From NCBI GenBank assembly GCA_036874045.1, contig CM072336.1:18905001-18969000 (forward strand): a DNA stretch of 64,000 bases, given 5' to 3'. Position numbers and translations under genes: made by a program. This stretch comes from Cymodocea nodosa (Eukaryota > Streptophyta > Magnoliopsida > Alismatales > Cymodoceaceae). The notes below the pieces were generated by a model that saw only the letters and a list, made by a program, of their open reading frames with translations, made no database searches and was not told the origin of the DNA. Shown here in pieces: positions 13,394 to 52,346 of this stretch (the stretch's first letter is position 1; each line of letters starts with the position of its first letter).

Positions 13394-13929
13394 CCTAAAT
13401 TTTTGCTAGTCCCTTAGCAAACTAAGATCTAATTAATTGGTCTTTCTAAAAGTGCTAGAATTAATTCTTCCTTTTTTCTTTTTTCTTTTTTTATGTTCAG
13501 CATAAGAACTTGTATTATATAGATCTTCTGTATGTTTCAGTAATATTGTTTTCTCCTCTTCAACTTGCAAATATACTTAGAATATATGCAAATTACATAC
13601 AAAGTATATCATCATCACATAGGTGTTAATTATATTATCGTTTGTTGTACTTTTCATCATCTGTCATCTTGAATTTTCCAATAAGATTTCTAGAAGAAAT
13701 TTCAACAACATACGAATCAAAGTACAATCCAATTCAATCTGATTAAGACAAGTAGAATAAAGAATTGTATCTCCATAAAACAACTTCAAAAGTCAATTCT
13801 AGATTCATATTTCAGCAATTCTAGATAACAGAAAATATACTTGATTCATAAGATATCTATATTTCACAAAATACTTGTATCGTTTCAGAACAGTATATGT
13901 ATTTTTGTACTTTAAAAGTTAATTTGACA

Positions 13930-14200
13930 AGCTTGAATCATACAAGAGCTTTCTAATGTACCCATGTAATGAGCTTTCAGTCAACAATCCTAGATTTGAT
14001 CAGGATCTTAGGTTGCCAGATTTCAAGAGTCCTTTTTCAAGTCAACAATCCTTACATACCTATCTGCTCAAGTACAAAAGGCTCATGATCAAACAAGTCA
14101 ATAAACTCTCAAAGTTTCTTTTTTCTTTTTTTTACAAAACAACACTGTATATGTATGTATTTCATTAATACAGATGCAATAAAACACCAATCTCATATAG
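13930..14200. repeat. Conserved noncoding module, A1 copy
   Basis: Same ~270-bp module as at 2161-2430, with the same orientation relative to the element's sense strand. Confidence 0.87.
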
Positions 14201-14525
14201 TCCTGCTTCTATCATTTATTGAAAATATGAATCCATAACAATAAGCTCATACTTTTTCTATAGTTTAATAAGATCTACACATAAATCATTCTACAAGTTT
14301 ATTCAGTCAAATTAAATGTATCTTTAATCATATGTTTCATTTAATCTAGAATTCACATCTCAGCTCTTTCAGGACTTCAGATAATTTACTGATTTTTCAT
14401 TAAGCATTCTGATTTCATTTTAAAATCGTGAAACTATTAAACTCATGAAATTTAATTTCCACAAACTTTTCAATACCATTTTAATTCCTTTAATTAACAA
14501 ACTTACATGGTTGTTACTTTAATTA

Positions 14526-14540
14526 CCTCCCCTCCTTACC
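14526..14540 (-). other. Internal (second) polypurine tract of A1
   Basis: Complement is GGTAAGGAGGGGAGG, preceded by ATTGAGGACAATGC, the context usually found next to the 3' LTR of plant gypsy elements. Here it lies ~1.15 kb before the real LTR. A2 has the equivalent at 51050-51064. Confidence 0.65.
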
Positions 14541-14989
14541 AACATTTTGCATTGTCCTCAATGTAAAGGATTTGACAATAAATACGGTAATTGTAGCAAG
14601 CATGAATATAATTTCGTTGATTTAGCACCTAACTCAACGAATGGGTTTAAATCTAAATTCTAGATAAGTAATCAGTTACATACCTTGTTTCGTTTGTATC
14701 TCCTTCTGCATATTCCAATTTTTGATTCTAAAAAACTTTTTATTCACAAATAAAAGCAGAATATATAACAAAATAACAGTTAATAGATATTTATAAATTA
14801 GTGTCTTGTGTGGAACCTAGGCTCCTATGCCTTTGGTGGCTCACAAGTAAGCCAGTTGGTTTCCTAGAACAGATACCAACAAACTGGATTGATATTTTGT
14901 TTTTATTTTTTTATTTTTTATAAAATAAACTAAAACTGAAATTTTTCTAAAAGTAAATGCAGAAAACACACAACATTAAAAGCACAAAA

Positions 14990-16112
14990 TCACAGCTTAA
15001 GAACATGATTGAAAAGTAGAAACAAATGGAATAAATGTGTTAGTCCAAGCAAACTTTTAGGCATAACTATTCTTGCTATTAATTCTGTTTTAATGTAGTT
15101 CGTGTTCCTTCTTAATTTGTAAACTTGTAGTATATTATCAATACTAAATATAAGTATATTTCCATTAATGAAATGAAATGCAGAAAGAGATCCCCTTCTA
15201 TTCCAATATAGTGTAGGTGTTTCTATTTCTACATCTATTTCAATATATTCCTCTTCCCACTTCCATTCATTTAGGTATTTTATAACCCATATTTGAAATT
15301 TCTTCAATTCATCCCACCATCTTATCAGACATAAAGTAGGATCATCATATTCATTATACCACATTCCTAATTGAATTTTATCATATTCTGTAGATGGTGG
15401 TTTAGCTATATCACTTGGTATTGGTAATATTTTTATAAAATCATCATAACTGTCTATGCTTACTATGTATAAATCAGATCTAAATGCAACTAATATATCT
15501 ATGACTAGATATATATATCCATCAAGTATGATATGTATATTGTTAATTAATGATTTCTGTCCTAGATATATGTTAGTGTTTTCAGTCCAAGATCTATTTA
15601 GAAAATTATACACACTCAAGCATAAATCTTCATCCCATTTTCCTATAGGTCTCCAATAATATCAGAAAATTTTTATTAGAAAATATTAAAGCCAACCCAC
15701 AATTTTCAGTTGGTACTTCATAACTATTAGGTCTTCCTATATTCCATTCTTCTCTTATGATAGGATTTCTGATCAAAATATCAGGTAATAGAATTGCATA
15801 CCTTGGTTTGGTTCTGTATATAATTAATCCTTCATCTATCCCCATAATATGATCTATTCCTTCTAATGTATTGGGTGGAATTCCAGTAGTTTCTTCCATA
15901 TTCAGATATTCATGGCTAATTGAACTACGATTAAATGACTTCCATATGAATCCCTCTCTAGTCTTAGTCATTTTTGCAGCTTGTAGTCCTTGAAAATATT
16001 TTTCTCCAACACAGTCTTTGATTTTCTTTGATACACAACATAGCCTGCATAGATCTTTAGCAGCATTCTGTAAATATCTACATTCTGTCAACTTAATTAA
16101 AGTTAAATACAT
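14990..16112 (-). pseudogene. F-box protein ORF carried by A1 (5'-truncated)
   Basis: Homologous to the F-box ORF of A2 (49497-50631). The start of the F-box is lost: the deletion that removed the capsid ORF joins upstream sequence to AAKDLCRLCCVSK, the second half of the F-box helix bundle. A frameshift near 15660 splits the rest into 15630-16112 and 14990-15619. The C-terminal ~270 residues are intact in sequence (blocks RNPIIREEWNIGRP, LSVYNFLNRSW, IIRWWDELKKFQIW-like) and resemble the associated region of plant F-box proteins, rich in Trp/Tyr beta-strand segments. In host proteins the F-box binds SKP1 of SCF ubiquitin ligases; whether this copy ever did is unknown. A2 reads Gln-to-stop at one site where A1 keeps Gln. 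Confidence 0.7.
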
Positions 16113-16512
16113 GTCATTAATGCAGCATTCTAATTTAATTCATTTAAATTTGAACATTATATAAATTTTTAACTTGCAGTTCATTTCATGTTATGCAGAA
16201 ATTAAATTTTTTCTTTGCAGCATGTAGATATTTTCAGGCATTTGGTTTGTTATTGTACCTTCAATCTTGTGCTTCTGCAGATTGCATAATGTTTCACATT
16301 TTATATAATATTCAAGATAATTCATTCATTTATATCATTCATAAACACGCATGAAAAATATATCTGAAAAGCATATATTCATTCATATGAATCAATTACA
16401 GTACAATCAAATCAGATATTTTTCATACAAATATATACAAGTACAAGTAGACAAACTATACAATTTAATCTCTCTTCCTAAGTTCATCTACTTCCTTCTG
16501 GAGTTTTTCTAA
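16113..16512 (-). other. Gap between ORF3 and F-box ORF in A1
   Basis: AT-rich with no ORF. It matches 46974-47340 of A2, then jumps to A2 position ~49560. This shows that the 47340-49560 interval of A2, with the capsid ORF, is absent here. Confidence 0.7.
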
Positions 16513-18704
16513 TTACTGCTCTAATTGGTTTATCCTCTCTACAGCTCCAATAATGCCTCTAGAAGGTACAGATACTTCAGCTGCAGCATAATTTCTATAT
16601 TCTTTCACTGAAATGGTTCTTGATCTCATCCTTTTGGATGTCCATTTCGTGAAATCAATACAGTCTACCATCAATATAGATATCAAATCTCCATAAAATA
16701 ATTTCTTCTTTGCATACTTCATTTTGGATAGGAAGACTTGACACCAATTAACTTGAATTCTATTCACAACTACGTAAGTGGCCCACTTGACAAATTGACT
16801 TAGTTCAATGTCATGGCCCTGTCGTTGGTAGACATTTTTAATCAAAATGTTAGCTATCATGTGTGCTTTACCATTTAAATGCTTCAGTCTATTTAATAAT
16901 GGCACACCAAGATTGATAGTCAAACTGTCCTTAATTTCCTGCTCTGTCCATTCAACGGTAGTTGTGCTTTCCAAAATTTCTTTTCCTTCATTCTTCAATC
17001 CAAAAATGTTGTGGAGAAGCTCTGGTGTTATCTGTACATCAGCTTCCTCCATGTTGGAAATTAATTTTCCTTCTTCTTCTCTTAAATTAGCATAGAAATA
17101 GGGTACTAGATTTTCATATATTGCATGCCCTTTTTGTTGAGGAATAAATTGTAGTAGACTGTAGAACTCAAATAATTCCTTAATTTCTTGCATTCCTTAA
17201 TTTCTTGCATTCCGTCCCAATTTACTGGTCTACTATATATGATATCATAACCCCTAATCTCTTGGTATTTATTATAAACTTCCTGACTCCAAAAGTGTAC
17301 TTCATTCAGAACTATTGCTTCAGTCGGGTCAGGAATGTGACTTTGTTGTTCTAGAGGGGTTTGTTCTTGATCTTCCTCTTCCATAGGCTAAACTTGAACT
17401 TGCTGAAAATGTTCTGCAGATTCCTGAACATTTGCTTCTACTTGTGGTGGTGAGCCGGCAGAACTCTCCACTCTGTCTTGAAGTGTTTCATTAAATTCAG
17501 TCGAATCTACAAAGTCATTTTTGTCCATATGGCTTTGTTCAACTTCTTGTTCATTATCTATTCTTTCTTCTTCCTCCTGACTACCAATCTGCATTGTCAC
17601 TGTTCTTTCTGATTCAGTGGTAGATTGGGATGGAGTTACGGGCAAATCAGCTTCTGCCCTAATTTCTGTTTCTTCTATTTGTACAGGTTGCAGACTAGTT
17701 TCAGCCTGTTTTTCTTCTTCTTTATGCTCTTGCTGCTACTGCTCCTGCTCCTCAGAATCGGATAGCAGGTTCACAAAAATTGGCTTTGCAGGCCCTCTTA
17801 ATATTGGTACTTCAAATTTAATTTCCTCTTGATATTCAAGCACTATCTCTTTTCCTTTCCTTTTTCTGATTAATTGTGCCTGGTCTTTCTCTTCATCATC
17901 TGAAATTAAATCCACAAAGGTAGGCTTTGCAGGCCTTCGAGCCACAAGTACTGACTCTTCTTGTTTAATTCTTTCAATATTTGCTGGTCTCGAAGGACCA
18001 GCTTCATCTCCTTTTGCAGCAAGTTTGGTAGTACCTTCACGATGTTGTTCCACTTTGATTCTATATTAGGCTTTCAACTTTTCTACAACCCTCTTTTTGC
18101 ACCGTGCATCAAACACCAGATGTGCTATGGCTATTGCCAATTCTTCTGGTTCTCCTTGGTCTTTTCCTATTTGAACCAATTCTTGAAATTCTCTTTTTTC
18201 CTCTTTAGTAGAAGGCCCCAAAATTGCTGCTCGTTCCATCAACCTTGGTGGTGGAACTGAAGGTCCTAACTGTTGTTCCTTAGGAACAGTTCTTTCAGCA
18301 GTCAGTTCCTCCAGTTCTTGACTTGCCTCTTCTTCTCTTTCTTTCCTTTCTTGCTCCTAGATTGCCCATTTACCTTGTCCATAGATTCGTCTTTTGAACC
18401 AGAGCTGGGACTTACGTTGGATTAATTCTAAGGCAACTTCGTTGTTTGGCCTTATTTTTCTCTCCTTGCTTACAGCAATTTCCGTAGCAACATTTATTCT
18501 TGTTTCTATTATTTGAGGTATTTGTATACCCAAATCTACTAAAACTCTTCTGAAGTTGAAAAGTTCAGATTCTACCTTCTGTAGTTTTTTTTCTCTTGTC
18601 GTATTTTTGATTTTCTACCTCGTGTGCCATTCTTCTGATTCATTAAGAAATTCTGAAGTGTCAACCGCATCTTCCCAGAACTCGGGTGTCATCTTCCTCA
18701 TCAT
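16513..18704 (-). pseudogene. ORF3 of A1: acidic, SIM-like motifs, transposon-protein domain
   Basis: The ATG at 18704 opens a ~730-codon frame ending at 16513, broken by a few stops and by a 17-bp tandem duplication at 17175-17208 that shifts the frame. N-terminal ~250 residues: charged, Lys/Glu-rich. Then come two copies of a P-A-K-P-x-F-V-[DN]-L-[IL]-S-D block (17889-17918 and 17748-17777) that look like SUMO-interaction motifs, with a basic RKRKGK stretch between them. A Glu/Gln-rich linker follows, then a ~250-residue C-terminal domain (YNKYQEIRGYDIIYSRPVNW, FYANL, ITPELLHNIFGLKNEG, NRIQVNW). The last part resembles the 'putative plant transposon protein' domain family; I could not search to confirm. 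No membrane segment. A2 has the same ORF at 45241-46970. Confidence 0.72.
17175..17208. repeat. 17-bp tandem duplication in A1 ORF3
   Basis: attccttaatttcttgc occurs twice head to tail; A2 has it once. It shifts the ORF3 frame by two. Confidence 0.9.
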
Positions 18705-19188
18705 GGAGTTACACAACGACACGAAGTCGCTTTGATCTCTACTATTCTAAGTTTTAAATGATTCTACGGATAACGCCCCTAAAACCCTAAGTTTAAGATA
18801 AATAAGCCCTAAGTTTAGGTGGGTAAGTTCATTGACTAACTCAAAACTCAACGGAGTAAGTTTGTTGAGTTAAGCGTAACTCAACGGACCTCCCGTACAA
18901 ACAGATATATAAAAATAATAAAATAAATACTTAAGATAATAGTTTTTTTTTTCTTCAGTTTTTACCAGTTTAACCGATACTATGTTTCGGTCAGACCGAC
19001 ATTTTTTTTTTTTTCAGTTGAACCGATCTATGTTTCGATAATAAAAAAATTTACTAAAAATTAATATAGATTTTTTTTATGTTCTAGTCATACCGATGGA
19101 TCCAATCGGTTGAACCACAATGATTTTTTTATATTTTATAATTAAATTTTTATTATTATATGAAAATAAAATAAAAACTGATTTCTTA
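18705..19188 (-). other. Gap between integrase and ORF3 in A1
   Basis: Contains an imperfect hairpin of the TAACTCAACGGA type (18861-18889) and repeated cggttgaaccga / atgtttcgg motifs around 18965-19120. No ORF. Confidence 0.6.
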
Positions 19189-20640
19189 CTAAGTAAAGCT
19201 CGAGTAGTCCTCTACTCTAACTTCTTCTATAATTCCAAAGGAGTTTTTTGGTATTTTCAGAATAGGTCTAAGCCATTGTCCATTTACTTTAAATATATTC
19301 TGATTTTTAGGATTTTCAATCTCAATAACTCTATAAGGATAAATATTTCGAACTATATAAGGTCTTACCCATCTAGATCTTAATTTTCCTAGATGGTTAT
19401 GGAGTCTAGCCATATAAAGATATACTTCTTATCCTATTTCAAAGTTTTTTGGAATAATTTTCCTATCATGCTAGAATTTCATTTTCTCTTTTTCTCTTAC
19501 AGTTTTCGAATAAGCTTCATTTCTAAATTCTTCTAATTCAATTAATTACATTTTCCTATTTTCAACAACTTGATTTAAATTAGTGTTCAGAGTTTTTAAT
19601 GCCCAATAAGCTTTATGTTTTAATACAGTTGGTAAATGACAACTTTTTCCATATACTAGCCTAAAAGGTGACATACCTAAGCTTGTCTTATAAGCAATTC
19701 TATAAGCCCAAAGTGCATCTATCAATCTATTAGCCCAATCTGTTCTAGTAGGATTTACTACTTTTTCTAAGATTAACTTAATTTGTTTGTTAGCACTTTC
19801 TACTTGTCCACTTGTTTGTAGATGATATGATGTTGCAATTTTGTGGTTTACTCCATATTTCTTCATTAAGGCTTCAAAATTTCTATTACAGAAATGAGTT
19901 CCTCTATCACTGATAATAACTTTAGGTATTCCAAATCTGGCAAATATATTAGTTCTTATAAATTGTATTACCACTTTGTTGTCATTAGTTTTTATAGGAA
20001 TAGCTTCTATCCATTTAGATACATAATCCACCCCCAACAATATGTAATTAAATTGATTAGACATAGGAAATGGACTCATAAAATCTATTCCCCACACATC
20101 AAAGATTTCAACCTCAACAATAGGATTAAGAGGCATCATATTCCTCTTTGATATTCTTCCTATTTGTTGACATCTTAAACAATTTAAGCAATATTTATGA
20201 GCATCTTTGAATAGTGTTGGCTAATAAAACCCACATTGTAGAATTTTTGCAGTAGCTTTCCCTGAGCTAAAATGCCCTTCACAAGCTTGGTCATGACAGA
20301 AAGACAATATGCTCTGATATTTAGTTTCTGGAACACACCTCCTTAGAATTAGATCAGGACATTTCTTAAATAAGTATAAGTCTTCTCAATAGTAATGTTT
20401 TACTCTTGAGAAAAACAATTTCTTATCCTTAGGTGTTAAACTAGTAACTAAGTAATTAACTATGTCTGCATACCAAGATATTATGTTGATGGTCATTAAT
20501 TGTTCATCAGGAAAATTATCCTTAATTTCAATATTTGATTTTTCTATTTGTAATCTTGATAAATGATCTACTACTACATTCTCACAATCTTTTTTATCTT
20601 TAATTTCTAGATCAAATTCTTGTAATAATAAAATCCATCG
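19189..20640 (-). pseudogene. pol: A1 integrase
   Basis: Reads the HHCC zinc-binding region (around 20150-20350, with stops), the core with the catalytic triad ([29 protein letters not shown] and E all present), and a C-terminal GPY/F-like module (KLRSRWVRPYIVRNIYPY; A2 has AGPY). It ends in FKVNGQWLRPIL, a typical Athila ending. A TAA at 19429-19431 (complement) lies six codons before MARLHNH, and the same stop is present in A2. Another stop (CAA to TAA) precedes LIELEEF. Confidence 0.92.
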
Positions 20641-21990
20641 GATCAATCTAGGCTTAGTCTCTTTTTTTGCTATTAGGTGTTTTAAAGCTGCATGATCCGT
20701 GTATACTATTACTTTAGCTCCAATTAGATATGATCTAAACTTTCCAAGGCAAACACAACAGCTAATAGTTCTTTTTCAGTAGTTGTGTAATTAACTTGAG
20801 CATCATTTAAGGTTTTGCTTGCATAATGAATCACTCTAGGAGATTTTTCTATCTTCTATCCCAACACTACTCCTACAGCAAAATCAGATGCATCATACAT
20901 TAATTCAAATGTATGACTCCAATCAGGTGCTTGAATTATAGGAGTTGAAATTAAGCTAGTTTTAAGTTTGAAAAATGCTTCCTTGCAATTTTTATCAAAG
21001 TTAAATGGGACATCTTTTAATAGATTAGTTAAAGGTCTAGCTATTTTGCTAAAGTCTTTAATAAATCTTCTATAAAAACCAGCATGTCCTAGAAATGATC
21101 TAATATCTTTTACTGATTTAGGTTCTGGTAGATTAGAAATTACTTCTATTTTAGCTTTATCTACTTCCAACCCTTTCTTAGAAATGACATGCCCTAAGAC
21201 TATTCCTTGTTTAACCATGAAGTGACATTTTTCCTAATTTAGAACTAGTGATTTTTTTCCATACAACGTTTTAATATTTGGTCTAAATTTTTTAAACAAA
21301 CTTCATATGAGTTGCCATATACAGTAAAATCATCTATAAATATTTCTAAGAAATCTTCAGTCATTCCAGTAAATATGCCCTACATATACCTTTGAAAGGT
21401 GGCTGGTGCATTGCATAATCCTAATGACATTCTCTTAAAAGCATAAGTTCCATTAGGACAAGTCAAAGTTGTTTTCTCTTGATCCTCTAATGCTACTGGA
21501 ATTTGAATATAACCTGAATACCCGTCTAGGAAACAAAAATATTCTTGCCCTACTAATCTTTCCAGCATTTGATCTATAAAAGGTAAGGGAAAATGATCTT
21601 TCCTAGTCACAACATTCAGCTTTCTATAGTTTATACATACTCTCCAGCTTGATTGAATTCTAGTAGGTATCAAGTCTTGACTTTCATTCCTAATTACTGT
21701 TAATCCTGATTTCTTGGGAACTATATGGATTGGGCTAACCCACGAGCTATCAGAAATCGGATAAATTATGTCATTATCTAACCATTTCACTATTTCCTTC
21801 CTGACTACTTCTTTAAGGTTTGGATTTAATCTCCTCTCAGGAATTCTAACAGGTTTAGCATTCTCTTCTAAATATATGTAGTGATAGCATAAAGTTGAAC
21901 TTAACCCTTTTATATCAGTCATAGTCCATCCTATTGCTTCTTTATAACTTTTTACTACATCTTTTAATTTAACTATTTGATCCTCTTTTA
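20641..21990 (-). pseudogene. pol: A1 reverse transcriptase and RNase H
   Basis: From right to left: the RT N-terminus (VRKEIVKWLDNDIIYPISDS, WRVCINYRKLN), LPFIDQMLERL, FLDGYSGY, then the catalytic F-I-D-D block near 21320-21345. The connection region follows ([41 protein letters not shown]), then RNase H with DASDFAVGVVLG and the [19 protein letters not shown] blocks. Several stops and small shifts break it (for example in the segment 21219-21379 and at 20640-20855), but the catalytic residues are recognisable. Slightly less damaged by missense change than A2, more by frameshift. Confidence 0.92.
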
Positions 21991-22018
21991 AATCTGAAGC
22001 AATAATGATTGGACATGT

Positions 22019-22990
22019 TCATTTCTCTTCCAGAAATATATAGGTTAATTCAGGAAGTAAAGGTTTTAATTCTAAATGTTGCCCATCAGAAGCTAAAGCT
22101 CCTAATTGAACATCATCCTTTTCTAAATTAATTTCTTCCAGATCTCCTTCTATATTTATGCTTTCACTTTCCTCTAAAGTTTTAGAATTGATTTGCCTAT
22201 TTAATTCTTCTTGAATCACATCCTCTAACATATCTCCTTCATCCTCTAAAAAGTCTATGGTATGTAAGGACATTTCTAACTCCTCAAACCTTTCTGGTTT
22301 GAAAATATTTAATTGAGTATCCTCATTACCATATGCTAACTTCATTACTCCAGTTTTACAATTTATAACAGCCCCTGATGTTAAAAATGACCTTCCCAAA
22401 ATTAAAGATGTATCACTATTTTTATGCTTAATTTGTTGGGAATCCAAAATTACAATATCAATAGGATATATAAAGTTTTTGATTTTAATTAAGACATCCT
22501 CTATTTTTCCTCTAGGGTATCTTATACTTCTATCAGCTAATTGAATAACCATACTAGTAGGAGTTAAGCCTTCTAATCCTAAGGATGCAAATATATCACT
22601 TGGCATAACATTTATACCTGCACCCTAAGTCTATTAAGGTTCTTTTTAGAATGGTATTTCCTATGGTGCATGATATAACAGGGATTCTAGGATCTGATAA
22701 CTTTTTAGGAATTTGTGGCAAAAATAGGGAACTACTTTGCTCAGCTAAAAGGACATTTCTAAGAACCTTTCACTCTCTTTTCTTAGTACATCAATCCTTC
22801 AGAAATTTAGCACAAGGTGACATTTTCTACAAAAAATCTAACAAAGGAATGTTAACTTGTACTTTTTCAAAAATATCTCTGATTTTTCTTATTTTTCAAG
22901 TATTGTTTGTTGTAATCTTTTAGGATAGGGTGCTAAAGATTGTGATTTAAATGATTCTTTTTCTTTCAGTTGATTTCTTTGATCATTTTT
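22019..22990 (-). pseudogene. pol: A1 aspartic protease region
   Basis: Reads IPLLD..KMPPCAKFLK-like text, then the retropepsin block (DLG...INVMPSD, LADRSIRYPRGKIEDVL, PIDIVILDS, LILGRSFLTS). A one-base G insertion near 22623-22626 breaks the frame inside the active-site loop. A TGA at 22770-22772 (complement), just after KKRE, is shared with A2 (41101-41103). The end at 22019 is a CGA-to-TGA change relative to A2 (EEKRTCP). Confidence 0.88.
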
Positions 22991-23011
22991 AGCCTCATTA
23001 GCAGATTTAGA

Positions 23012-23817
23012 TTATTCTTTAGTGATTTCTAGATTTTCAGCTATTACATTTTCATTATCATTTTTATTTTTACTCTTATCCACCTTCATATTATTTTCAT
23101 TTTGAGTTCTTGGTGGTATATCAGTTCCAGATCTTAATGTTACACATACATCTTCCAGATTTTCGTTACTCTCTTGATGTTTTTGTATATCATTTTCGTG
23201 ATTATGATCTTCAATTGTTTTTAGTTTTAAAGTGCATTCTTTAAATTCTCTTGCATTAGTATTTTCTTTTGTCTGTATATCTTGCAAATTATGCAGATCT
23301 ATAACATTATAATTTCCATTGTCCTGTTGCATAACTTGTATTTTCATTGTATATTCGTCCAATGCTTTTAGTTTTCTTTCAAGATCATCTAATGTCATTG
23401 CATTCAATTTTTGATCAATTTTCATTATGGTTTTTTCAGTTTCGTAAATTATATCCATTTTAGGTTTTGAATATGCTTCCTTATAGTTTAATTGGTTAAC
23501 TTCTTGTTGCTGACACATAAAATATTCTAGTTTGCCCAGGTTTTACTCTATACTACTCTCCAATCTGTCATACCTATCCCAAACTTCCGTGTCTCTCAAC
23601 ATATTACACATTCTATATAGACCATCAGTTGGGTAAATTATAGGATTCTCATACTCGGCTCTATTATATTGAGGATAATTCATTTGTTGTTCATGGGATC
23701 TAGCCATCTACAAACGTCTCAGTTTCAAACAGTCAGAAATATCGTGACCTTCAGAATTGCAAAATTCACATATGCTAACTATAGGTTTCAGAAATCTTTG
23801 AACATAAGCATATGCCA
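23012..23817 (-). pseudogene. gag: A1 zinc-knuckle ORF (nucleocapsid and linker), no capsid
   Basis: The ATG at 23817 lies only ~80 bp after the PBS and opens with the CCHC knuckle CEFCNSEGHDISDC (C-x2-C-x4-H-x4-C). The Athila linker follows: MNYPQYNRAEYENP, an Asn/Glu/Lys coiled coil, then VTLRSGTDIPPRT, the block that normally precedes the protease. There is no room for the ~200-residue capsid domain that should precede the knuckle. A stop follows KLRRL and others follow. The same arrangement is seen in A2. Confidence 0.85.
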
Positions 23818-23893
23818 TATTCTCAATTACAGAAGAAAACACACAACACTCTGGCTATTAAAACAAACAACTCTAACAGTTGCTTATATGAAC

Positions 23894-23911
23894 TCCCCAG
23901 CAACGGCGCTA
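23894..23911 (-). other. Primer-binding site of A1
   Basis: Complement TAGCGCCGTTGCTGGGGA resembles the tRNA-Asp-type PBS of Athila elements (TGGCGCCGTTGCCGGGGA). A 7-nt spacer AGTTTTC separates it from the LTR, exactly as in A2. Confidence 0.9.
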
Positions 23912-23918
23912 GAAAACT

Positions 23919-25624
23919 TGTTAGGTTCTCCAGCATGGCACCAAAAAAACTTGATTGGTTACCTAGCAACGCGCCAGAAAAACTTGGATTTGTTAACTTC
24001 TGTTTTTACTTAGTTAATTTATCTTTATGCCTATTTCTTTTTAGAAGTAAACAAACAACCTTTCACACAAATTAGATATTAATTCCAATTTGTATTTTAA
24101 TTGCAAGCGCACAGTGTCTATTGTATTAGTGTGCAAGTACAAGTCGATCCCACAGGGAATTGCTTAAGAATTGTGAACTGTTCCGATTTTAACAATCAAA
24201 TTTATATATTCAATAAGCTCTCCGTTGAGTTATAGTTAACTCAACGGACTAAGTTCGTTGAGTTATGGCTAACTCAATGGACTAACCTCGTGGACTTAAG
24301 TTAACTCCACGAACCTGCCTTTCCTATTTAATACTACTATTTATAGAGGAAATCGGCCAACCATTGGGCGGTTCCACAGATTGTAAATAACATCAATTAA
24401 GCTCTTTAATGTTAGTAAACACTGGATTTATCATTAGGTAATACTAACATTCAGATAATTCAAACAATAACCATTAAAAATTTTTAGTCTTTTGAACGAA
24501 CCAATTTCAGTAACTATAAAACTAAAACAAACATAAAATAATCAAAACACTAACAAAGATAACATTAATCACGATACAAAACAAACAATACAACACTCAA
24601 ATACAAAATATAAACATAGATAAGTTGTTTTTGGTATTTTTGTTTTGATATGAGCATGTAAATGGGCGAAAGGTGAAATGTAAAGTAATCTTAGTCGACA
24701 GTAAATACTTCTGTCAATATATGCGACGCGATTACACCACTGAAAACTTAATCACTTACAATTTTGCCTCCTCTCCCTATAGAATCGCGAGTCTAGAATT
24801 ACAAGATGATCTCCTCTTTAGCATATAGGCATCAACCCAAAGCCAAGGCTAGAAGTTTTACAATCTCCTGAGATATGAGTTGGCGCTTGGTGAAAATGGC
24901 TTCTCTTTCCGCGACGGAATCACTCCTCACAATGGTTGTCAGGCATTATGTTTAGCTCGGAATCGACCCGACATCAGGAAAGTATCCTCACAGACCTCCG
25001 ATGGTTGGTGATTATAGTGGTGGTGATGATGGTTGGTGTGGTACTTCAGAGAATTGTCGACGCTGATCCTCCTCTACACACACTAGCCACACCCATCGAT
25101 CACACCCTTTACTTCTTTTTCTTCTTTTCTTTTATATTTCTTCAGTGGTAACTACTTCTGCTTGAATGGTCGGTTGGATTTCCTTCATTTATATCAACGA
25201 CGATGATTTCTTCTCCCTTCGACGAGTGAATTCCTACGTGATACGTGTAATCGTGATTTTTTTCTTCCAACTATTCTGTTTCTACAACCGCTACAGTGAC
25301 ATATTAGAAAATAAATGGTCTGTGGAGTTATAGATAACTCAATGGACTTGCTTCGTTGATTTAACTATAAAACACATGCATAAATTTAACTATCCGATAC
25401 TTAGGTGCATTTCGGATACTTAAGAATTTCACAACCTGTAATTTACCGATAGTTCAGAAATGTACTAAATTAACATTAATTCCTTGAACTTATGTAGATT
25501 CTTTCATTAAAACATATAATAGTGCAATTATAACATAATGACTTAATTCTCATATGATAAGCTAAATATTATGCAATTAACCATCATTTAATCATTAATA
25601 TTATGCACTTTTTCATTCTAAACA
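23919..25624 (-). repeat. 5' LTR of A1
   Basis: 1706 bp, TG...CA on the minus strand. The triple hairpin is at 24221-24312; its first hairpin (24221-24248) is perfect: TCCGTTGAGTTA, TAGT, TAACTCAACGGA. Confidence 0.96.
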
Positions 25625-38250: not shown

Positions 38251-39948
38251 TGTTTAGAATGAAAAAGTGCATATTATTAACGATTAAATGATGGTTAATT
38301 GCATAATATTTAGCTTATCATATGAGAATTAAGCCATTATATCATAATTGCACTGTTACATGCTTTAATTAAAGAATCTGCTTAATTTCGGTGAATTAAT
38401 GTTAATTTAGTACATTTTTGAACTATCGGTAAGTTGTAGGATGTGAAATCCTTAAGTATCCGAAATTGCAGTTGGGCATCGGATAGTTAGACCTGTAACT
38501 CTCTGAAATGTTTCTTTTATTATTAAATTGTTGTTGACACATGTCGAGATCTAGTAGATTTACCGGTTGCAGAATCAGAACAATTGGAAGGAAAAGCCAC
38601 GATCACACGTATCACGTAGGAATTCACTCGTCGAAGGGAGAAGAAATCATTGTCGTTGATATGAATGAAGGAAATCCAACCGACTATTCAAGCAGAAGCA
38701 ATTACCACTGAAGAAATATAAAAGAAAAGAAGAAAAAGAGGTGTGTGTGTGTGATCGATGGGTATGGCTAGTGTGTATAGAGGAGGAGCACCGAGCTTTC
38801 TACAAATAGTATTGGCAATTCTCTGAAGTACCACACCAACCATTATCACCACCATAATCACCAACCATCGGAGGTCTGTGAGGATACTTTCCTGATGTCG
38901 GGTCAATTCCGAGCCAAACACAGTGCTTTACAACCACTGTGAGGAGTGATCGCGTCGCGGGAAGGTAAGCCATTTTCACCAAGCGCTGACTCATATCTTA
39001 GGAGATCGTAAAGCTTCTAGCCTTGGCTTCGGGTTGATGCCTGTATGCTAAAGAGGAGATCATCTTGCAATTCTGGACTCGCGATTCTATAGGGAGAGGA
39101 GGCAGAATTGTAAGTGATTAAGTTTTCAGTGGTGTAATCGCGTCGTATGTAGTGACGGAAGTATTTACTATCGATTAAGATTACTTTACATTTCACCTTT
39201 CGCCCATTTCCATGCTCATATCAAAACAAAAATACCAAAAACAACTTATCTATGTTTATATTTTGTATTTGAGTGTTGTATTGTTTGTGTTGTATCGTGA
39301 TTAATGTTATCTTTGTTAGTGTTATGATTGTTTTATGTTTGTTTTAGTTTTACATATTATTGAAATTGGTTCGTTTAAAAGACTTAAAAGATTTTAATGG
39401 TTATTGAATTATCTGAATGTTAGTATGGCCTAATGATAAATCTAGTGTTTACTAACATTAAAGAGCTTAATTGATGTTATTTACAATCTATGGAATCGCC
39501 CAATGGTTGGCCAAATTCCTCTGTAAATAGCAGTATTAAATAGGAAATGCAGGCTCGTGGAGTTAACTTAAGTCCACAAGGTTAGTCCGTTGAGTTAGCC
39601 ATAACTCAACGAACTTAGTCCGTTGAGATAACTGTAACTCAACGGAGAGCTTATTGAATATATAATTTTGATTGTTAACAAATGGAACAGTTCTCAATTC
39701 TTAAGCAATTCCCTGTGGGTTCGACTTGTACTTGCACACTAATACAATATACACTGTGCACTTGCAGTTAAAATACAAATTAGAATTAATATTTAATTTG
39801 TGTGAAAGGTTGTTTGTTTACTTCTAAAAAAGAATAGGCATAAAGATAAATTAACTAAGTAAAAATAGAAGTTAACAAATCCAAGTTTTTCTAGTGCGTT
39901 GCTGGAGATCCAAATAAGTTTTTTGGTGTCGTGCTAGCCAAGCATACA
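38251..39948 (+). repeat. 5' LTR of A2 (1698 bp)
   Basis: TGTTTAGAATG...AGCATACA. TATA-like TATAAAAG at 38717-38724; hairpin array at 39554-39646. Small frames in it recur in all LTR copies and are not genes. Confidence 0.95.
39554..39646. repeat. Triple hairpin array in A2 5' LTR
   Basis: CTCGTGGAGTTA/TAAGTCCACAAG, TCCGTTGAGTTA/TAACTCAACGAA, TCCGTTGAGATA/TAACTCAACGGA with 3-4-nt loops. Confidence 0.85.
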
Positions 39949-39973: not shown

Positions 39974-40054
39974 ATTGAATTGATGTAAGCAACTGTTAGA
40001 GCTGTTTCGTTTTAATAGCTAGAGTGTTGTGTGTTTTCTTCTGTAATTGAGAAT

Positions 40055-45240: not shown

Positions 45241-46970
45241 ATGAAGAAGATGACACCTGAGTTCTAGGAAGATACAGTTGACATAGCACAATTTCTGAAG
45301 GAATCAAAGGAATAGCTACGACTAAGGCACATATTTTATATGATGCCATTAAGAAAAGAAGGGTCGAAGAAAAGTTGAGGGCCCACTACAAAATTAAAGC
45401 TGAACAGTATCAGGCAGCAGCTGAATCAAGTGCTGCAAAAGGAGATGAAGTTGGTCCTTCGAGACCAGTAATTATTGGAAAAATTAAATAGGAAGAGCCA
45501 TTACCTGTGGCTTGAAGGCCTGCAGAGCCTACCTTTGTAGATTTAATTTCAGATGAAGAAGAGGAAGAACAGGCACAATTAATTAGAAAAAGGAAAGGAA
45601 AAGAGATAGTGCCTGAATATCAAGAGGAAATTAAATCTGAAGTACCAATATTCAGAGGGCCTGCAGAGCCAATTTTTGTAAACCTGCTATTCGATTCTGA
45701 GGAGGAGCAGGAGCAAAGAGAAGAAAAACAGGTTGAAATTAGTCTGTAGCCTGTACAAGAAGAAGAAATAGAAATTAGAGCAGAAACTGAATTGCTTGTG
45801 ACTCCATCCCAATTTGCCACAGCATCAGAAAGAACAGTGATAGAGTAGATTGGTAGTCAAGAGGAAGAAGAAAGAACAAAAAATGAAGAAGAAGCTGAAC
45901 GAAGCCATTTGGACAAAAATGACTTTATAGATTCCACTGAAGAGTAAGAAACTCTTCAGCAATTAATGGAAAGAATTCAAGATAGAGTGGAGAGTTCTGC
46001 CGGCTCACCACTATAGACAAAAGTAGAAGCAAAAATTCCAAAATCTGTAAAACATGTTCAAATGCAGCCTATGGTAGAGGAAGTTCAAGAACAAACCCCT
46101 CTGGAACAACAAAGTCACATTCCTGACCCGACTGCAACAACAGTTTTGAATGAAGTACATTTTTGGAGTCAGGAAGCTTATAATAAATATCAAGAGATTA
46201 GGGGTTATGATATCATTTACAGTAGACCAGTAAATTGGGATGGAATGCAAGAAATCAAAGAATTATTTGAATTCCAAGGTCTACTGAATTTTATTTCTCA
46301 AGAAAGAGGGCATATAGTATATGAGAATCTAATGCCCTGTTTTTATGCAAATTTGAGAGAAGAAGAAGAAAAATTAATTTCCAATGTGGAGGAAGCTGAT
46401 GTATAGATAACACCAGAGCTTCTCCACAATATTTTTGGATTAAAGAATGAAGGAAAAGAAATATTAGAAAGTACAACTGCCGTTGAATGGACAGAATAGA
46501 CCATAAAGGATAGTTTGGCTATCAATTCTGGTGTGCCTTTATTAAACAGACTGAAGCATTTAAATGGTAAAGCACACATGGTAGCTAATATTTTGATTAA
46601 GAATGTCTATCAACGACAAGACCATGACATAGAATTGAGTCAATTTGTCAAATGGGCCACGTATGCAGTTGTAAATAGAATTCCAATAAATTGGTCTGTA
46701 GTTTTTATCTCCAAGCTGAAAATAGTAAAGAAGAAATTGGTTTATGGAGATATGATTCCACTGTTGATAGTGGACTGTATTGATTTCATGAAATGGGCAT
46801 CAAAGAGAATCAAATCAAGAACCATTTTAGTGAAAGAGTACAGAAATTTTGTAGCTGCAAAGATAGCTATACCTTCTCGAGGAATTACAGGAGCTATAGA
46901 GATAATTAATCAATTAGAGCAACAATTAGAAAAACTCCAAAAGGAAGTAGATGAACTGAGGAATAAAGAC
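45241..46970 (+). pseudogene. ORF3 of A2: SIM-like motifs and transposon-protein domain
   Basis: The ATG at 45241 matches the start of A1 ORF3 (18704). N-terminal charged region with a TAG at MTPEF-stop; tandem blocks EPTFVDLISDEEEEE (about 45524-45571) and EPIFVNLLFDSEEE (about 45667-45711) around RKRKGKE. Gln/Glu-rich linker, then the domain HFWSQEAYNKYQEIRGY, RPVNWDGMQEIKELFEFQGL, FYANLREEEE, ITPELLHNIFGLKNEGKE, HMVANILIKNVYQR, NRIPINWSVVFISKL, YGDMIP, and a C-terminal coiled coil. Stops are TAG/TGA at Gln and Trp codons. It probably resembles the 'putative plant transposon protein' family (Pfam-type), unconfirmed. The first SIM core VDLIS is retained; the second is changed to VNLLF. Confidence 0.72.
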
Positions 46971-47394
46971 TAAATTGTATTGTTCATCTACTTGTAATTG
47001 TATATAATTGTATGAAAAATATCTGAATTGATTACAATGTAAATTGATTCATATTAATGAATATATGTTTTTCAGATATATTTTTCGTGTGTGTTTGAGA
47101 ATGATGTATTGGATGAACTATCTTGAATATTAGACAACTATTTGAACACTATACAATTTGCTGAATGACAGGATAGATGCTTGAAAATTTCTGCATGTTG
47201 AAAAGAAAAAAATGTAAATTCTGCATAACATAAAATGACCTGCAAGTTAAATATTTATATAATGTTCAAATTTAAATGAATTTTGATTAGAATAAAGCAT
47301 TAATGACATAGATTTAACTTTATTTTAGTTAGCAGAATGCAGAAAAAAAAGAACATAGAAATTAATACGAGGAGTAAACTTAGAAGTTGCTTAG

Positions 47395-47711: not shown

Positions 47712-48081
47712 AGATTTATTCACTTTATGGATGTGCATTATATATATAAAATAGAATGTTATTTACGAGTTACCAACACTTTTAAAAGAAAGGAGAAAAG
47801 CGTTGGAGAAACTGGAAGGAGAAGCAATTGATTCAACTTCATCTGTCAACAACTATTTACTGAGTATAAAGCTTCAAATTGGTATGTAATTAATCTTCTG
47901 CTATCTTATTTTATGTTAAGAGTTTATGAGAACATGGACTTGTTCTCCTAGCACTAAACGATTAGTAAGAACACCTACATAGGATTATTCAACATAGAGA
48001 CGTACTGAAAAATTATTTGAATTGAACTTTAACGAAATCCTTTGGGGTGTAGCTAACCTTTCTTTAAAAGAGAACGTAGAG

Positions 48082-49266
48082 ATGGCTGCTCCAGTAGAAA
48101 AATCATTAGGAGAAATTCTGTATCTTGAATTAATTGATGAACCTTCATGTATTCGATTGCCAAACTTTGAGGGAGATAGGTTTGAACTGAAATCTAATTA
48201 TATTAGTCAATTGCCACATTTTCATGGATTAGAAAGAGAGGATGCCTATTATTTCCTTAGAGAATTTAACGAAGTTTGTCAAATGATGAAAATGCTGAAC
48301 AGGAGTATAGATGCTATTAAACTTAGATATATCCCTTTTTCTTTAAAAGACACAGCTAAGAGATGGTTATATACTTTATCGCCTAATTCGATTTCTACAT
48401 GGACTGAATTTTGCTCTGTTTTTCTGGAAAAATATTATCCAACACATCAAACGATTAAAAAGAAAAAAGAAATATTAATGTGTAGCCAAAAACAAGGTGA
48501 ATCGTTCTGGAAATATTTTGACAGATTTAAAGATTTACTGACTCAATGTCCAAATCATGCAATGAGTAAAGCACAATTGATAGGTATAATTTATGAAGGC
48601 ATAGATGTTTCAACAAAATCTTTATTAGAATCTACTTGTCAAAACGGATTTTTAAAATTGTGTAGTGAAGAAGCATGGGCATATTTAGAAAACTTTGCAA
48701 AAAGAACTGCATAGTGGGAAAACTCGACTGAAGCTATTCCAGATAAAAAAATATTGCCAAGAGGAATGCATGAAATAGATTCGAGCACTATGCTTGAAGT
48801 TAAATTAACTGAATTAACAAAGAAAATAGAAGAGTTATCATTAAATCAAAAGCTAGCAGAAAAGAATGCAAACATTAATGATCTAGATATTATTTATGCT
48901 AGAAATCAGAAGGATAACTTTGGAAATTCTTATAATCCTAATTGGAGAAATCACCCGAATTTATCTTGAAGAAACTACAATTGCTAGGTAGGAGAAAATA
49001 TAAATGAGAAGAATATAAGTTATGAAGCATTACTTGAACAAGGATCTAGAACAGAGAAATTAGAAAAGATAATCCAACAATTAAACAATCGTCTAGATTT
49101 TGTATTTGGAAATGCTGTAATTCAAAATCAAAATATAAATAGAAATATACCACCTAGACAGAAAGAATCAATAGAAGTTAGACCTACTGGATGATTGCCA
49201 ATGCAAGCAATACCTAACCCTATTAACAGAATGTTAATGAAATTGATACCTCCTCTAGGAGGGTAA
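48082..49266 (+). pseudogene. gag: Athila-type capsid (gag CA) ORF located 3' of pol in A2
   Basis: First ATG of the frame is 48082 (MAAPVEKSLGEIL). Retrotransposon gag capsid: RLPNFEGDRFELKSNYISQL, LPHFHGLEREDAYYFLREF, LRYIPFSLKDTAKRWLYTL, WTEFCSVFLEKYYPT, GESFWKYFDRFKDLLTQCP, IIYEGIDVSTKSLLEST. The usual Athila sequel follows, YNPNWRNHPNLS, a coiled coil and LPMQAIPNP. The frame stays open past the ATG for 210 codons, then has TAG at 48712 and several more stops, mostly at Trp/Arg codons. No zinc knuckle is present here; it is in the 40055 ORF. In standard Athila elements these parts form one N-terminal protein. A1 lacks this ORF by deletion. Alternative: a separate gag fragment inserted by chance. 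Confidence 0.88.
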
Positions 49267-49387
49267 CTGAATGAAACATCATAACTGAAGTAACTATGTA
49301 TAATATAGTAAGTAAAATATAAAAAAAAATAAAAATGAAAAAAAATGTGTAAGTTTACTTATAGTTGATAGTATCATAGAGTTATTA

Positions 49388-49432
49388 CTTAACTCAACGA
49401 ACTTAGTTCGTTGAGTTATGCCCTAACTCCAC
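49388..49432. repeat. Hairpin between capsid and F-box ORFs
   Basis: TAACTCAACGAA/TTCGTTGAGTTA perfect arms with loop CTTAG-like (49390-49420), then TAACTCCACGAG. Confidence 0.8.
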
Positions 49433-49496
49433 GAGGGTGTGTAGTAGTTATGTTAATTTTGTCTCTATTAATGTTTGTGTTATATAGAATCAATAA

Positions 49497-50631
49497 ATGG
49501 AATTGATGCAATTACCACAGGATGCACTAAGGGAAGTACTAAGTAACTTGCCAGCTAAAGATCTGTGTAGGATGTGTTGTGTATCGAAGGAAATTAAAGA
49601 CTGTATTGAAGAAAAATATTTTCAGGGACTACAAGCTGCAAAAATGACTAAGACTAGAGATGGATTCATATGGAAGTCATTTAATCGTAGTTCAATTAGC
49701 CATGAATATCTGAATATGGAAGAAACTACTAGAATTCCACCCAATACATTAGAAGGAATAGATCATATTATGGGGATAGATGAAGGATTGATCATATACA
49801 AGACGAGACTAAGGTATGTGAGTCTATTACCTGATATTTTGATAAGAAATCCTATTACAAGAGAAGAATGGAATATAGGAAGACCTAATAGATATGAAGT
49901 ACCAATTGAAAATTGTGGGTCGGCTTTAATATTTTCTGATAAAAATTCAAGCATTCCTAAAAAATTATATTATTGGAGACCTATAGGAAAATGGGATGAA
50001 GATTTATGCTTGAGTGTGTATAATTTTATAAATAGATCTTGGAATGAAAACACTATGATATATCTAGGATAGAAATCATTAATTAACAACATGCATATCA
50101 TTCTTGATGGATATATATATCTAGTCACAGATATATCAGTTGCATTTAGATCTAATTTATACATAGTGAGCATAGACTGTTATGATGAATATATAGAAAT
50201 ATTACCTATACCAAGTGAAATAGCTAAACCACCATCTGCAGAATATGATAAAATTCAAATAGGGATGTGGTATAATGAATATGATGATCCTACTTTATGT
50301 CTGATAAGATGGTGGAATGAATTGATGAAATTTCAAATATGAATTATGAAAGACAAATGAATGGAAGTGGGAAGAGGAATATATTGAAATAAATGTAGAA
50401 ATAGAAACTGCTACATTACCCTAGAACCAAAAAGGATCCCTTTCTACATTTCATATCATTAATGGTAATACACTTGTATTTGGAATTTATAATATATTAC
50501 ATGTTTACAAATTAAGAAGGAACAAGAACTACATTAAAACAGAATTAATAGCAAGAAGAATTATGCCTAAAAAGTTTGCTTGGATTGACACGTTTATTCC
50601 ATTTGTTTCTACTTTTCAATCATGTTCTTAA
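49497..50631 (+). pseudogene. F-box protein ORF carried by A2
   Basis: The ATG at 49497 opens with a clear F-box: LPQDALREVLSNLPAKDL followed by CRMCCVSKEIKDCIEE (residues ~6-40), with the Leu-Pro, Leu-Pro-x-Lys and Cys-Val-Ser-Lys positions of plant F-boxes. The rest (~330 codons) resembles an F-box-associated region: GFIWKSFNRSSISHEYLN, EGIDHIMGIDEGLIIY, NPITREEWNIGRPNRYE, YYWRPIGKWDEDLCLSVYNF, WWNELMKFQI. Open for 191 codons, then TAG at 50070-50072 where A1 has CAG (Gln); a TGA and small changes follow. In host proteins an F-box recruits substrates to SKP1-Cullin1 ubiquitin ligases. It lies between the capsid ORF and the 3' noncoding tail. The exact host donor is unknown. Confidence 0.78.
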
Positions 50632-51049
50632 GTTGTGATTTTGTGTGTTTAATGATGTGTCTATTCTGCATTTATTTTTAGAAAAAAAAACAAAATATCA
50701 ATCTAGTTTGTTGGTATCTGTTCTAGGAAACCAACTAGCTTGCTTGTGAGCCACCAGAGGCATAGGAGTTTGGGTTCCACATAAGACAATGATTTATAAA
50801 TATATGTTAAATGTTATTTTGTTTTATATTCTACTTTTATCTGTGAATGAAAAGTTTGTCAGAATCAAAAATCGGAATATGTAGAAGGAGATACAAATGA
50901 AACAAGGTATGTAACTGATTACTTATTCTGAATTTAAATTTAAACTCATTCGTTGAGGTAGGTGCTAAATCAACGAAATTGTATTCATGCCTACTACAAT
51001 TACTGTATTTATTGCCAAATCTTTTACATTGATGACAATGCAAAATGTA

Positions 51050-51064
51050 GGTATGGGGGGGAGG
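51050..51064 (+). other. Internal (second) polypurine tract of A2
   Basis: GGTATGGGGGGGAGG, ~1.27 kb upstream of the LTR-proximal PPT; counterpart in A1 at 14526-14540. Confidence 0.7.
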
Positions 51065-51549
51065 TAATTAAAGTAACAACCATGTAAGTTTGTTAACTAA
51101 AGGAATTAAAATGATATTGCAAAGTTTTTTGGAAAGTGAAAATTTTAATGAACTTGCTATAACTATCCAATAATTGAGACTGTAATTTTTTTTTATAAAC
51201 TATAACTGCTTGAATGATATATTTAGAAGGCTATATAAGATGCTAATCTAGATATAGTATCTTATGTTTTTTTCTAAATTTCATGATTTTAATAGTTTCA
51301 TGATTTTAAAATGAAATCAGAATGCTTAACTGAAAATCAGTAAATTATCTTAAATCCTAAAGGAGCTGAGATGTGAATTCTAGATTAAATGAAATACATA
51401 TGATTAAAGATACATTTAATTTGACTGATTAAACTTGTAGAATGATTTATGTGTAGATCTTATTAAACTACAGAAAAAGTATGAGCTTATTCTTATGGAT
51501 TCATATTATTAGTAAATGATAGAAGTAAGATTATATGAGATTGGTGTTT

Positions 51550-51840
51550 TATTGCATCTGTATTAATGAAATACGTACATATACAGTATGTGATTAATGT
51601 TTTGTTTTGTTTTTGTATCTTAAAAATAAAAAATAAAAAATAAAAATTTTGAGAGTTTATTGACTTGTTTGATCATGAGCCTTTTGTACTTGAGCAGATA
51701 GGTATGTAAGGATTGTTGACCTGAAAAAGGACTCTTGAAATCTGGCAACCTAAGATCTTGATCAGATCTGGGATTGTTGACTGAAAGCTCGTTACATGGG
51801 TACATTAGAAAGCTCCTGTATGATTCAAGCTTGTCAAATT
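51550..51840. repeat. Conserved noncoding module, A2 copy
   Basis: Reverse complement of the module at 13930-14200. On the sense strand it contains gcagataggtatgtaag, a splice-donor-like sequence (AG|GTATGT), also present in the other copies as its complement. Confidence 0.87.
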
Positions 51841-52335
51841 AACTTTTATAGTACAAAAATATATATACTGTTCTGAAAAGATACAAGTGTTTTGTTAAAT
51901 ACAGATATCTTATGAATCGAGTATATTTTCTGTTATCTAGAATTACTGAAATATGAATCTAGAATTAACTTTTGAAGTTGTTTAATGGAGATACAATTCT
52001 TTATTCTATTTGTTTTAATCATATTGAATTGGATTGTACTTTGATTCGTATGTTGTTGAAATTTCTTCTAGAAATCTTATTGGGAAATTTAGGATGACAG
52101 TTGATGAAAAGAAGAACAAACGATAATATAATTAATACCTATGTGATGATGATATACTTTGTATGTAATTTGCATATATTTTAAGTATATTTGCAGGTTG
52201 ATTGCTAAAACATACAGAATATCTATATACTAGTTCTTATGCTAAATAGAAGAAAAAAGGGAGAATTAATTCTAGCACTTTTAGAATGACCCATTAATGA
52301 GATATTAGTTTGCTAAGGGACTAGCAAAATTTAGG

Positions 52336-52346
52336 TATGGGGGAAG
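52336..52346 (+). other. Polypurine tract of A2 (LTR-proximal)
   Basis: TATGGGGGAAG directly before TGTTTAGAATG. Confidence 0.92.

What the first reader, a model, noticed from the sequence alone, without database searches (positions are those of the whole stretch)
49497..50631. Athila-like retrotransposon carrying an F-box protein gene
A ~378-codon ORF with a clear F-box (LPQDALREVLSNLPAKDL, then CVSKEIKD) lies inside A2 between the capsid ORF and the 3' LTR. A 5'-truncated copy lies at the same relative place in A1 (14990-16112). Two separate insertions share it, so it travelled with the element. F-box genes are host components of SCF ubiquitin ligases; as far as I know they are not standard Athila cargo. 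It may be a transduced host gene or a module used by the element, for instance against silencing proteins. The role is speculation.
Basis: partly seen in the sequence, partly recalled or inferred. Interest (0 to 1): 0.87.

Follow-up and report, generated by a model that had tools for sequence, protein, structure and literature searches.

The report
Retrotransposon family with spliced F-box gene
A large family of plant jumping genes in this genome carries, as a regular part, a gene for an F-box protein (a part of the cell's protein-destruction machinery), made from a spliced message and perhaps used against a host protein that limits the element.

Summary
The F-box reading frame is real (Pfam F-box E=1e-10), although the window copy is broken: open for 191 codons, then stops and a frameshift. 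It is not a chance insertion. A 30-base core of its F-box segment occurs 3,025 times in the 375-Mb genome at up to 3 mismatches (reversed control 0). All 20 F-box loci fetched lie in the same element, as do 7 of the 8 best Pfam F-box hits. In a separate sample of 10 gag loci, all 8 of this family have it. Intact 376-379-aa versions exist (7 fetched copies). Amino-acid change is reduced (0.64 of neutral, 0.53-0.76, in distant pairs; non-coding controls 0.87-1.20). Two features were not in the finding. The capsid ORF sits 3' of pol and ORF3, next to the F-box. Four fetched copies lack exactly one GT-AG intron that holds the capsid ORF; the spliced junction occurs 208 times genome-wide (control 0). 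So the F-box protein is most likely made from spliced RNA. The paper listings searched showed no F-box in an LTR retrotransposon. Likely role: SCF adaptor against a host restriction or silencing factor (inferred, untested).

The parts
38251..39916 (+). 5' LTR of element A2 (starts TGTTTAG)
   Evidence: direct repeat with 52347-52670, 94.4%; end placed by comparison with L020
39956..39973 (+). primer-binding site, tRNA-Asp type (assignment recalled)
   Evidence: TGGCGCCGTTGCYGGGGA-like sequence after the LTR in A1, A2, L012, L017, L020
40019..44367 (+). zinc-knuckle region (by eye; no capsid), protease, RT, RNase H, integrase; several stops
   Evidence: Pfam RVT_1, RT_RNaseH, rve; no Pfam match in 40019-40291
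45354..47050 (+). ORF3, Athila ORF1-like (Transposase_32), broken here
   Evidence: A1 counterpart 16516-17196(-) matches PF20167 at 1.4e-5
47882..49487 (+). intron GT...AG, 1606 nt, containing the whole capsid ORF
   Evidence: L010, L017, L021, L022 lack exactly this segment; donor GT kept in 22 of 22 and acceptor AG in 27 of 31 places with that site (hand count); spliced junction 208x genome-wide
47998..48711 (+). capsid (gag) ORF, 3' of pol and ORF3
   Evidence: Retrotrans_gag 1.6e-20
49497..50630 (+). F-box ORF, broken in this copy (open 49497-50069)
   Evidence: F-box PF00646 1e-10; intact relatives
50641..52346 (+). 3' non-coding part ending in polypurine tract TATGGGGGAAG (52336-52346)
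   Evidence: sequence; same tract before the 3' LTR of L017
52347..52670 (+). 3' LTR of A2, truncated
11677..25624 (-). element A1 with both LTRs (94.1% identical), target duplication GTGTT/ATGTT (1 mismatch), no capsid ORF
14990..16061 (-). F-box ORF of A1, lacks first ~20 codons, frameshifted

Best explanation
The F-box ORF is a regular accessory gene of a high-copy Athila-like LTR retrotransposon family. Layout: LTR - zinc knuckle/protease/RT/RNase H/integrase - ORF3 - capsid - F-box - LTR. Unspliced RNA serves pol and, through the retained intron, the capsid. Removal of one GT-AG intron that holds the capsid ORF puts a short leader exon in front of the F-box ORF, in frame with a start codon in that exon, so the F-box protein is made from a spliced RNA, as accessory proteins of retroviruses are. 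Shown from sequence: family-wide presence, integrated copies of spliced RNA, and reduced amino-acid change. Inferred: the protein binds SKP1 through its N-terminal F-box and, with its roughly 330-residue C-terminal part, brings a host protein that limits the element (silencing or restriction factor) to SCF for destruction. Confidence: module about 0.95, spliced expression about 0.9, SCF adaptor about 0.7, host restriction or silencing target about 0.4.
For: Module: 3,025 genomic matches to the F-box core; 20 of 20 loci fetched, 7 of 8 best F-box hits and 8 of 8 same-family capsid loci among 10 sampled are in the element. It is present in copies that lost the capsid (A1, L010, L017, L021, L022) and in copies that lost pol (L020, L024); L020 is a complete pol-less element with a perfect 5-bp target duplication. 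Splicing: exact junction in 4 fetched copies, 208 genome-wide with control 0; the F-box frame runs back through the junction to an exon-1 ATG in all 4. L010 groups with unspliced L023 (support 0.95), apart from L017/L021/L022, which lie among unspliced copies, so at least two splicing events unless recombination moved the junction. Selection: F-box 0.64 (0.53-0.76) of neutral expectation in the class of 81 distant pairs and 0.70 (0.58-0.87) in the 231 middle pairs; F-box domain 0.41 (0.23-0.76) in distant pairs; non-coding controls 0.87-1.20 and 0.85-1.07. F-box domain found in 16 of 16 aligned copies.
Against: The whole-ORF constraint is moderate. In the 209 close pairs the F-box (0.84, 0.67-1.04) does not differ from the non-coding controls (0.83-1.03), and the ORF without the F-box domain is 0.92 (0.73-1.18); in distant pairs it is 0.67 (0.56-0.80). 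Pairs are not independent, intervals come from resampling codons only, and the neutral spectrum was taken from the same non-coding parts that serve as controls. No RNA data: splicing is read from integrated copies. No SKP1 binding or target is shown. C-terminal fold unresolved: FBA_1 below cut-off, no convincing PDB relative for that part, structure model unusable (pLDDT 35). 4 of 31 places lost the AG acceptor.
Confidence: 0.55

Rival explanations
1. The F-box is a host gene picked up once by an ancestor of the family and carried along as a passenger without use to the element.
For: The copies in the window are broken, and only 7 of the 20 loci hold a full 376-379-aa frame; constraint is not seen in close pairs; host transductions in LTR elements are known (PMC7264820, parts 1 and 2 of 3 read).
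Against: Reduced non-synonymous change in distant and middle pairs; full-length frames in several branches of the tree; exact splice site leading into its frame with an in-frame leader ATG; present where capsid or pol is lost.
Confidence: 0.12
2. The F-box protein acts on the element's own life cycle: it brings the element's Gag, Pol or ORF3 product to SCF and sets their ratio or keeps copy number in check.
For: Capsid and F-box are alternative products of one splicing choice, which would suit a regulator of Gag; capsid-less and pol-less forms coexist.
Against: Nothing here shows binding; sister families exist in which no F-box was recognised near the capsid.
Confidence: 0.2
3. The F-box protein changes host cell state (cell cycle or hormone signalling) in favour of retrotransposition, as the F-box protein Clink of nanoviruses is said to do (recalled).
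For: Plant viruses use F-box proteins in several ways (PMC3588083, search listing and abstract start only).
Against: No sequence relation to any named host pathway found.
Confidence: 0.13
4. These are ordinary host F-box genes into which retrotransposons happened to insert.
For: Plants have many F-box genes; L005, 1 of the 8 best hits, shows no element sequence and a long host-type frame.
Against: Same flanking modules in 20 of 20 loci; 3,025 matches; L020 moved as a unit with a 5-bp target duplication.
Confidence: 0.01

Closest known systems
Athila / Calypso (Ty3/gypsy, Tat-Athila clade) LTR retrotransposons with an additional ORF between pol and 3' LTR
   Same: Ty3/gypsy pol, Athila ORF1-type ORF3 (Transposase_32), tRNA-Asp type primer-binding site (recalled), long LTRs
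   Different: carries an F-box gene; capsid lies 3' of pol and ORF3 instead of between LTR and pol; capsid inside an intron
Orchid Ty3/gypsy elements with an m6A demethylase (2-ODD) ORF (PMC9289625)
   Same: a host-type domain kept as additional ORF in one plant gypsy family
   Different: different enzyme; the word F-box does not occur in the main text of that screen of 121 angiosperm genomes (its supplementary chart of all domains was not seen)
Polerovirus P0, F-box silencing suppressor aimed at ARGONAUTE1 (PMC6593998, abstract start)
   Same: a viral F-box-like protein in plants; a model for how it might work
   Different: no sequence relation tested; target here unknown
Spliced RNAs of plant LTR elements (Bagy2 env-like, from PMC7264820; BARE, PMC3735527, search listing)
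   Same: splicing used to express one product
   Different: here the intron removes the capsid and exposes a 3' accessory gene, and the spliced junction is integrated 208 times

Membership tests
LTR retrotransposon, Ty3/gypsy | two LTRs, PBS, PPT, target-site duplication | tested here: met
   A1 LTRs 94.1%, duplication GTGTT/ATGTT with 1 mismatch; L020 perfect AACAC duplication; PBS; PPT
LTR retrotransposon, Ty3/gypsy | pol order RT-RNase H-integrase | tested here: met
   RVT_1, RT_RNaseH, rve in order 41266-44364
LTR retrotransposon, Ty3/gypsy | gag 5' of pol | tested here: not met
   pol follows LTR and PBS directly in A1, A2, L012, L017 (Pfam test of that stretch in A2 only); capsid 3' of ORF3
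Athila clade | Athila ORF1-type ORF between pol and 3' LTR | tested here: met
   Transposase_32 1.4e-5, below Pfam's cut-off; link to Athila ORF1 in PMC11728184
Athila clade | RT groups with Athila in a tree | not tested
   no reference RT sequences at hand
F-box protein | F-box domain over the Pfam cut-off | tested here: met
   42.7 bits, cut-off 20.5, in L011; matched in 16 of 16 aligned copies
F-box protein | C-terminal substrate domain of known type (FBA, kelch, LRR) | tested here: inconclusive
   FBA_1 in 4 of 16, best E 0.026; no convincing PDB relative for that part
SCF adaptor | binds SKP1 and directs ubiquitination | not testable with these tools
   needs experiment
Polerovirus P0-like silencing suppressor | loss of AGO1 or suppression of silencing | not testable with these tools
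   needs experiment

The most novel reading that the evidence does not exclude
A plant retroelement lineage that moved its capsid gene behind pol, put it inside an intron, and uses the splice choice to switch between particle protein and a self-encoded SCF substrate adaptor that destroys a host silencing factor: a retrotransposon counterpart of retroviral accessory proteins, with spliced (pol plus F-box) and pol-less (capsid plus F-box) forms that could complement each other.
Probability: 0.3. Interest if true: 0.93.

Novelty: new variant of a known kind. Interest (0 to 1): 0.8.

Why it matters
Transposons are under constant silencing in plants, and I know of no other plant retrotransposon with a gene that could act on the host's protein-destruction system (recalled; see the searches in the Full report section). 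An F-box gene with about 3,000 genomic matches, a clean splice site and reduced amino-acid change makes that directly testable: bind SKP1, find the target. It also bears on plant F-box gene counts, since such copies could be annotated as host genes, and the capsid-behind-pol order departs from the gag-pol order used to annotate LTR elements.

Tried and rejected
Structure: a single-sequence model of the window's 191-aa F-box part came out at pLDDT 35, so no fold search was run. The protein database search with L011 found nothing at E<=0.001 among 928 candidates; I do not know how well that database covers plants. The PDB searches gave nothing for the single protein and 4 weak matches for the profile, best E 0.098, two of them to the F-box of F-box only protein 4.

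Selection: my first measure (Nei-Gojobori style) gave omega 0.37-0.40 for distant pairs, but the same method gave 0.58-0.78 in non-coding parts and 0.53 and 0.85 in the wrong frames of the F-box. It overstated constraint, and I replaced it with a spectrum-corrected ratio. In one search, aligned pieces under 65% identity and copies under 60% coverage were dropped, so L002, L004, L007 and L008 are not among the 33 F-box copies. In one search the same four were dropped as too short. The notebook entry still carries the uncorrected values and counts the sister loci L030 and L037, which are one place, twice.

Internal promoter: a TATA-like box at 47663 is not general, as most copies read CATAAA or similar; dropped. 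The ORF3-less junction 45074/46916 (L017, L018, L021; L024 nearly the same) and the pol-less junction of L020 and L024 are not GT-AG; they look like deletions shared within sublineages. LTR-capsid contact in L016 and LTR-F-box contact in L001 I read as nested LTR insertions, not short elements. In L016 a pol fragment lies beyond the capsid, in my reading part of another element.

Not reached: counts of unspliced donors, acceptors, capsid, integrase and a second F-box motif, a whole F-box DNA search and a host FBA search did not complete. Unanswered calls: 3, 8, 11, 14, 18, 20, 22, 27, 30, 36, 44, 47, 54, 57, 59, 64, 65, 68, 71, 72, 74, 78, 81, 82, 84, 86, 88, 90, 91, 94, 96, 98, 100-103, 105, 107, 108, 111, 113-115, 117, 118, 120, 121, 123; of these requests the F-box family, the spliced junction and the F-box core were answered on a later try. 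So the share of spliced copies is unknown, and no host progenitor was sought.

Full report
What is in the window. The F-box ORF starts at 49497 on the + strand. Its first 191 codons are open and match Pfam F-box at 1e-10 and F-box-like at 6e-6. A TAG at 50070, a stop at 50340-50342 and a later frameshift break the rest. It lies in element A2: 5' LTR 38251-39916, primer-binding site, pol 40019-44367, ORF3 45354-47050, capsid ORF 47998-48711 (Retrotrans_gag 1.6e-20), F-box 49497-50630, polypurine tract, truncated 3' LTR from 52347. Element A1 (11677-25624, minus strand) has both LTRs, 94.1% identical, and a target duplication GTGTT/ATGTT with one mismatch. Its F-box copy lacks the first ~20 codons and is frameshifted, and its capsid ORF is gone. 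At a rate of 1.3e-8 per site and year (recalled) A1 is about 2.4 million years old.

The F-box belongs to the family. The window lies in a 374.6-Mb genome of 28 contigs. Of the 8 best Pfam F-box hits fetched, 7 are in this element and 1 (L005) shows no element sequence. I then fetched 20 further loci out of the 150 listed F-box hits, chosen by hand: 18 with open frames of 291-411 aa, 2 with 184 and 192 aa. All 20 show the same element modules around the F-box. That choice is biased to F-box loci, so I also took 10 of the 150 listed Retrotrans_gag hits, spread by hand. Eight belong to this family and all 8 have the F-box directly 3' of the capsid (one, L042, lacks its start); the other 2 (L037, L039) are sister families in which none was recognised (best profile match E=0.061, not significant) in the stretch seen. 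A 30-base core pattern of the F-box occurs 3,025 times at up to 3 mismatches, and its reversed control 0 times. Frames of 376-379 aa occur in 7 fetched copies (L010-L015, L019).

Capsid behind pol. In A1, A2, L012 and L017, the 4 fetched places where LTR, primer-binding site and the start of pol are seen together, pol begins within about 100 bases of the LTR; the stretch was scanned for a capsid domain in A2 only, without a match. Where pol and capsid of this family are both visible (A2, L012, L015, L018, L019, L023), the capsid is 3' of pol; L019 is rearranged. In L016 a pol fragment lies beyond the capsid, apparently part of another element. Sister families (capsid about 50% identical) were seen at 9 distinct places (L029-L036 and L039; L037 is the same place as L030). 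At 7 of the 9 integrase is followed by gag on the same strand; L032 shows only the end of integrase, cut by an LTR, and L039 none. Their own LTRs were not seen. Paper searches for such an order gave nothing relevant.

Splicing. Copies L010, L017, L021 and L022 lack exactly the segment that in A2 is 47882-49487. The lost piece starts GTATGT and ends in AG; the joined exons read ...CAGACTG|AATCRACAAATGG.... This is what reverse transcription of a spliced RNA leaves. The intron holds the whole capsid ORF. In the spliced copies the F-box frame runs upstream through the junction to an ATG in the leader exon (4 of 4); A2 itself lacks that ATG. The junction pattern is found 208 times in the genome at up to 3 mismatches, control 0; how many copies are unspliced was not counted. 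In the fetched places that still have the sites, the donor GT is kept in 22 of 22 and the acceptor AG in 27 of 31 (counted by hand from the printed list). In an F-box tree of 33 copies L010 pairs with unspliced L023 (0.95), away from L017, L021 and L022, so splicing was captured at least twice, unless recombination moved the junction. L010 and L021 still carry pol sequence, so a long RNA was spliced.

Forms that lost parts still have the F-box. L020 is complete: LTR, primer-binding site, capsid, F-box, LTR, no pol, with a perfect AACAC target duplication; L024 shares its deletion. L017 and L021 have pol sequence (L017 with a large deletion) and F-box, no capsid. As these loci were picked by F-box, this does not show that the F-box is kept more often than other parts.

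Selection. With neutral expectations taken from the non-coding parts of the same copies, the ratio in the class of 81 distant pairs is F-box 0.64 (0.53-0.76), capsid 0.58 (0.43-0.83), ORF3 0.34 (0.24-0.48), RT/RNase H 0.71 (0.51-0.98), integrase 0.63 (0.36-1.20); non-coding controls 0.87-1.20 and the F-box read in wrong frames 0.91 and 1.24. The F-box domain alone is 0.41 (0.23-0.76). In the 231 middle pairs the F-box is 0.70 (0.58-0.87). For 209 close pairs it is 0.84 (0.67-1.04), no different from the controls (0.83-1.03), as expected when recent copies decay freely. Pairs share history, so the intervals are too narrow. The constraint is of the size seen for gag and pol, not stronger, and weaker than for ORF3. 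A cruder method gave lower values that its own control did not support.

Function. The N-terminal domain matches the F-box in 16 of 16 aligned copies. The C-terminal part resembles FBA_1 only weakly. The parsimonious reading is an SCF substrate adaptor encoded by the element and made from spliced RNA. What it targets is unknown; a host silencing or restriction factor is my first choice by analogy with polerovirus P0 (PMC6593998, abstract start seen), about 0.4. Acting on the element's own Gag is next, since capsid and F-box are alternative products of one splice choice.

What is known. [quoted passage not shown] A screen of 121 angiosperm genomes reports 15 non-canonical domains; the F-box is not named in the section read and the term occurs 0 times in its main text, but its supplementary chart was not seen (PMC9289625). 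Searches pairing F-box with retrotransposon terms showed no such element in the titles and abstract starts listed (one search listed 12 of 174 papers; the listed papers that hold both words were not opened). The library lacks most subscription papers and preprints.

Noticed in passing
window 39556-39644, 44967-45056, 47398-47557, 49390-49433, 50951-50975: Motif YGTTGAGTTA, often as a palindrome with about 33-bp period, clusters in the LTR, before ORF3, before the capsid leader, before the F-box and after it; 101 matches in the window at up to one mismatch against 11.6 expected. The exact palindrome is in 27 of 46 loci. It could bind an element protein.
   Followed up: partly
L029, L030 (= L037), L031, L033-L036: Sister families with gag about 0.4-0.7 kb 3' of integrase: capsid behind pol is wider than the F-box family.
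   Followed up: partly
L017, L018, L021, L024: Sublineage lacking ORF3 by what looks like one shared deletion that is not a clean intron.
   Followed up: partly
window 30742-32496 (+): Actin-like exons: a host gene between the retroelements (named by recall).
   Followed up: no
window 2850-7685 (-) and 58145-60892 (+): Copia-type elements with long open stretches (named by recall).
   Followed up: no
window 52667-53424: Directly after the truncated 3' LTR of A2 an inverted copy of the element's own 3' non-coding part begins.
   Followed up: no
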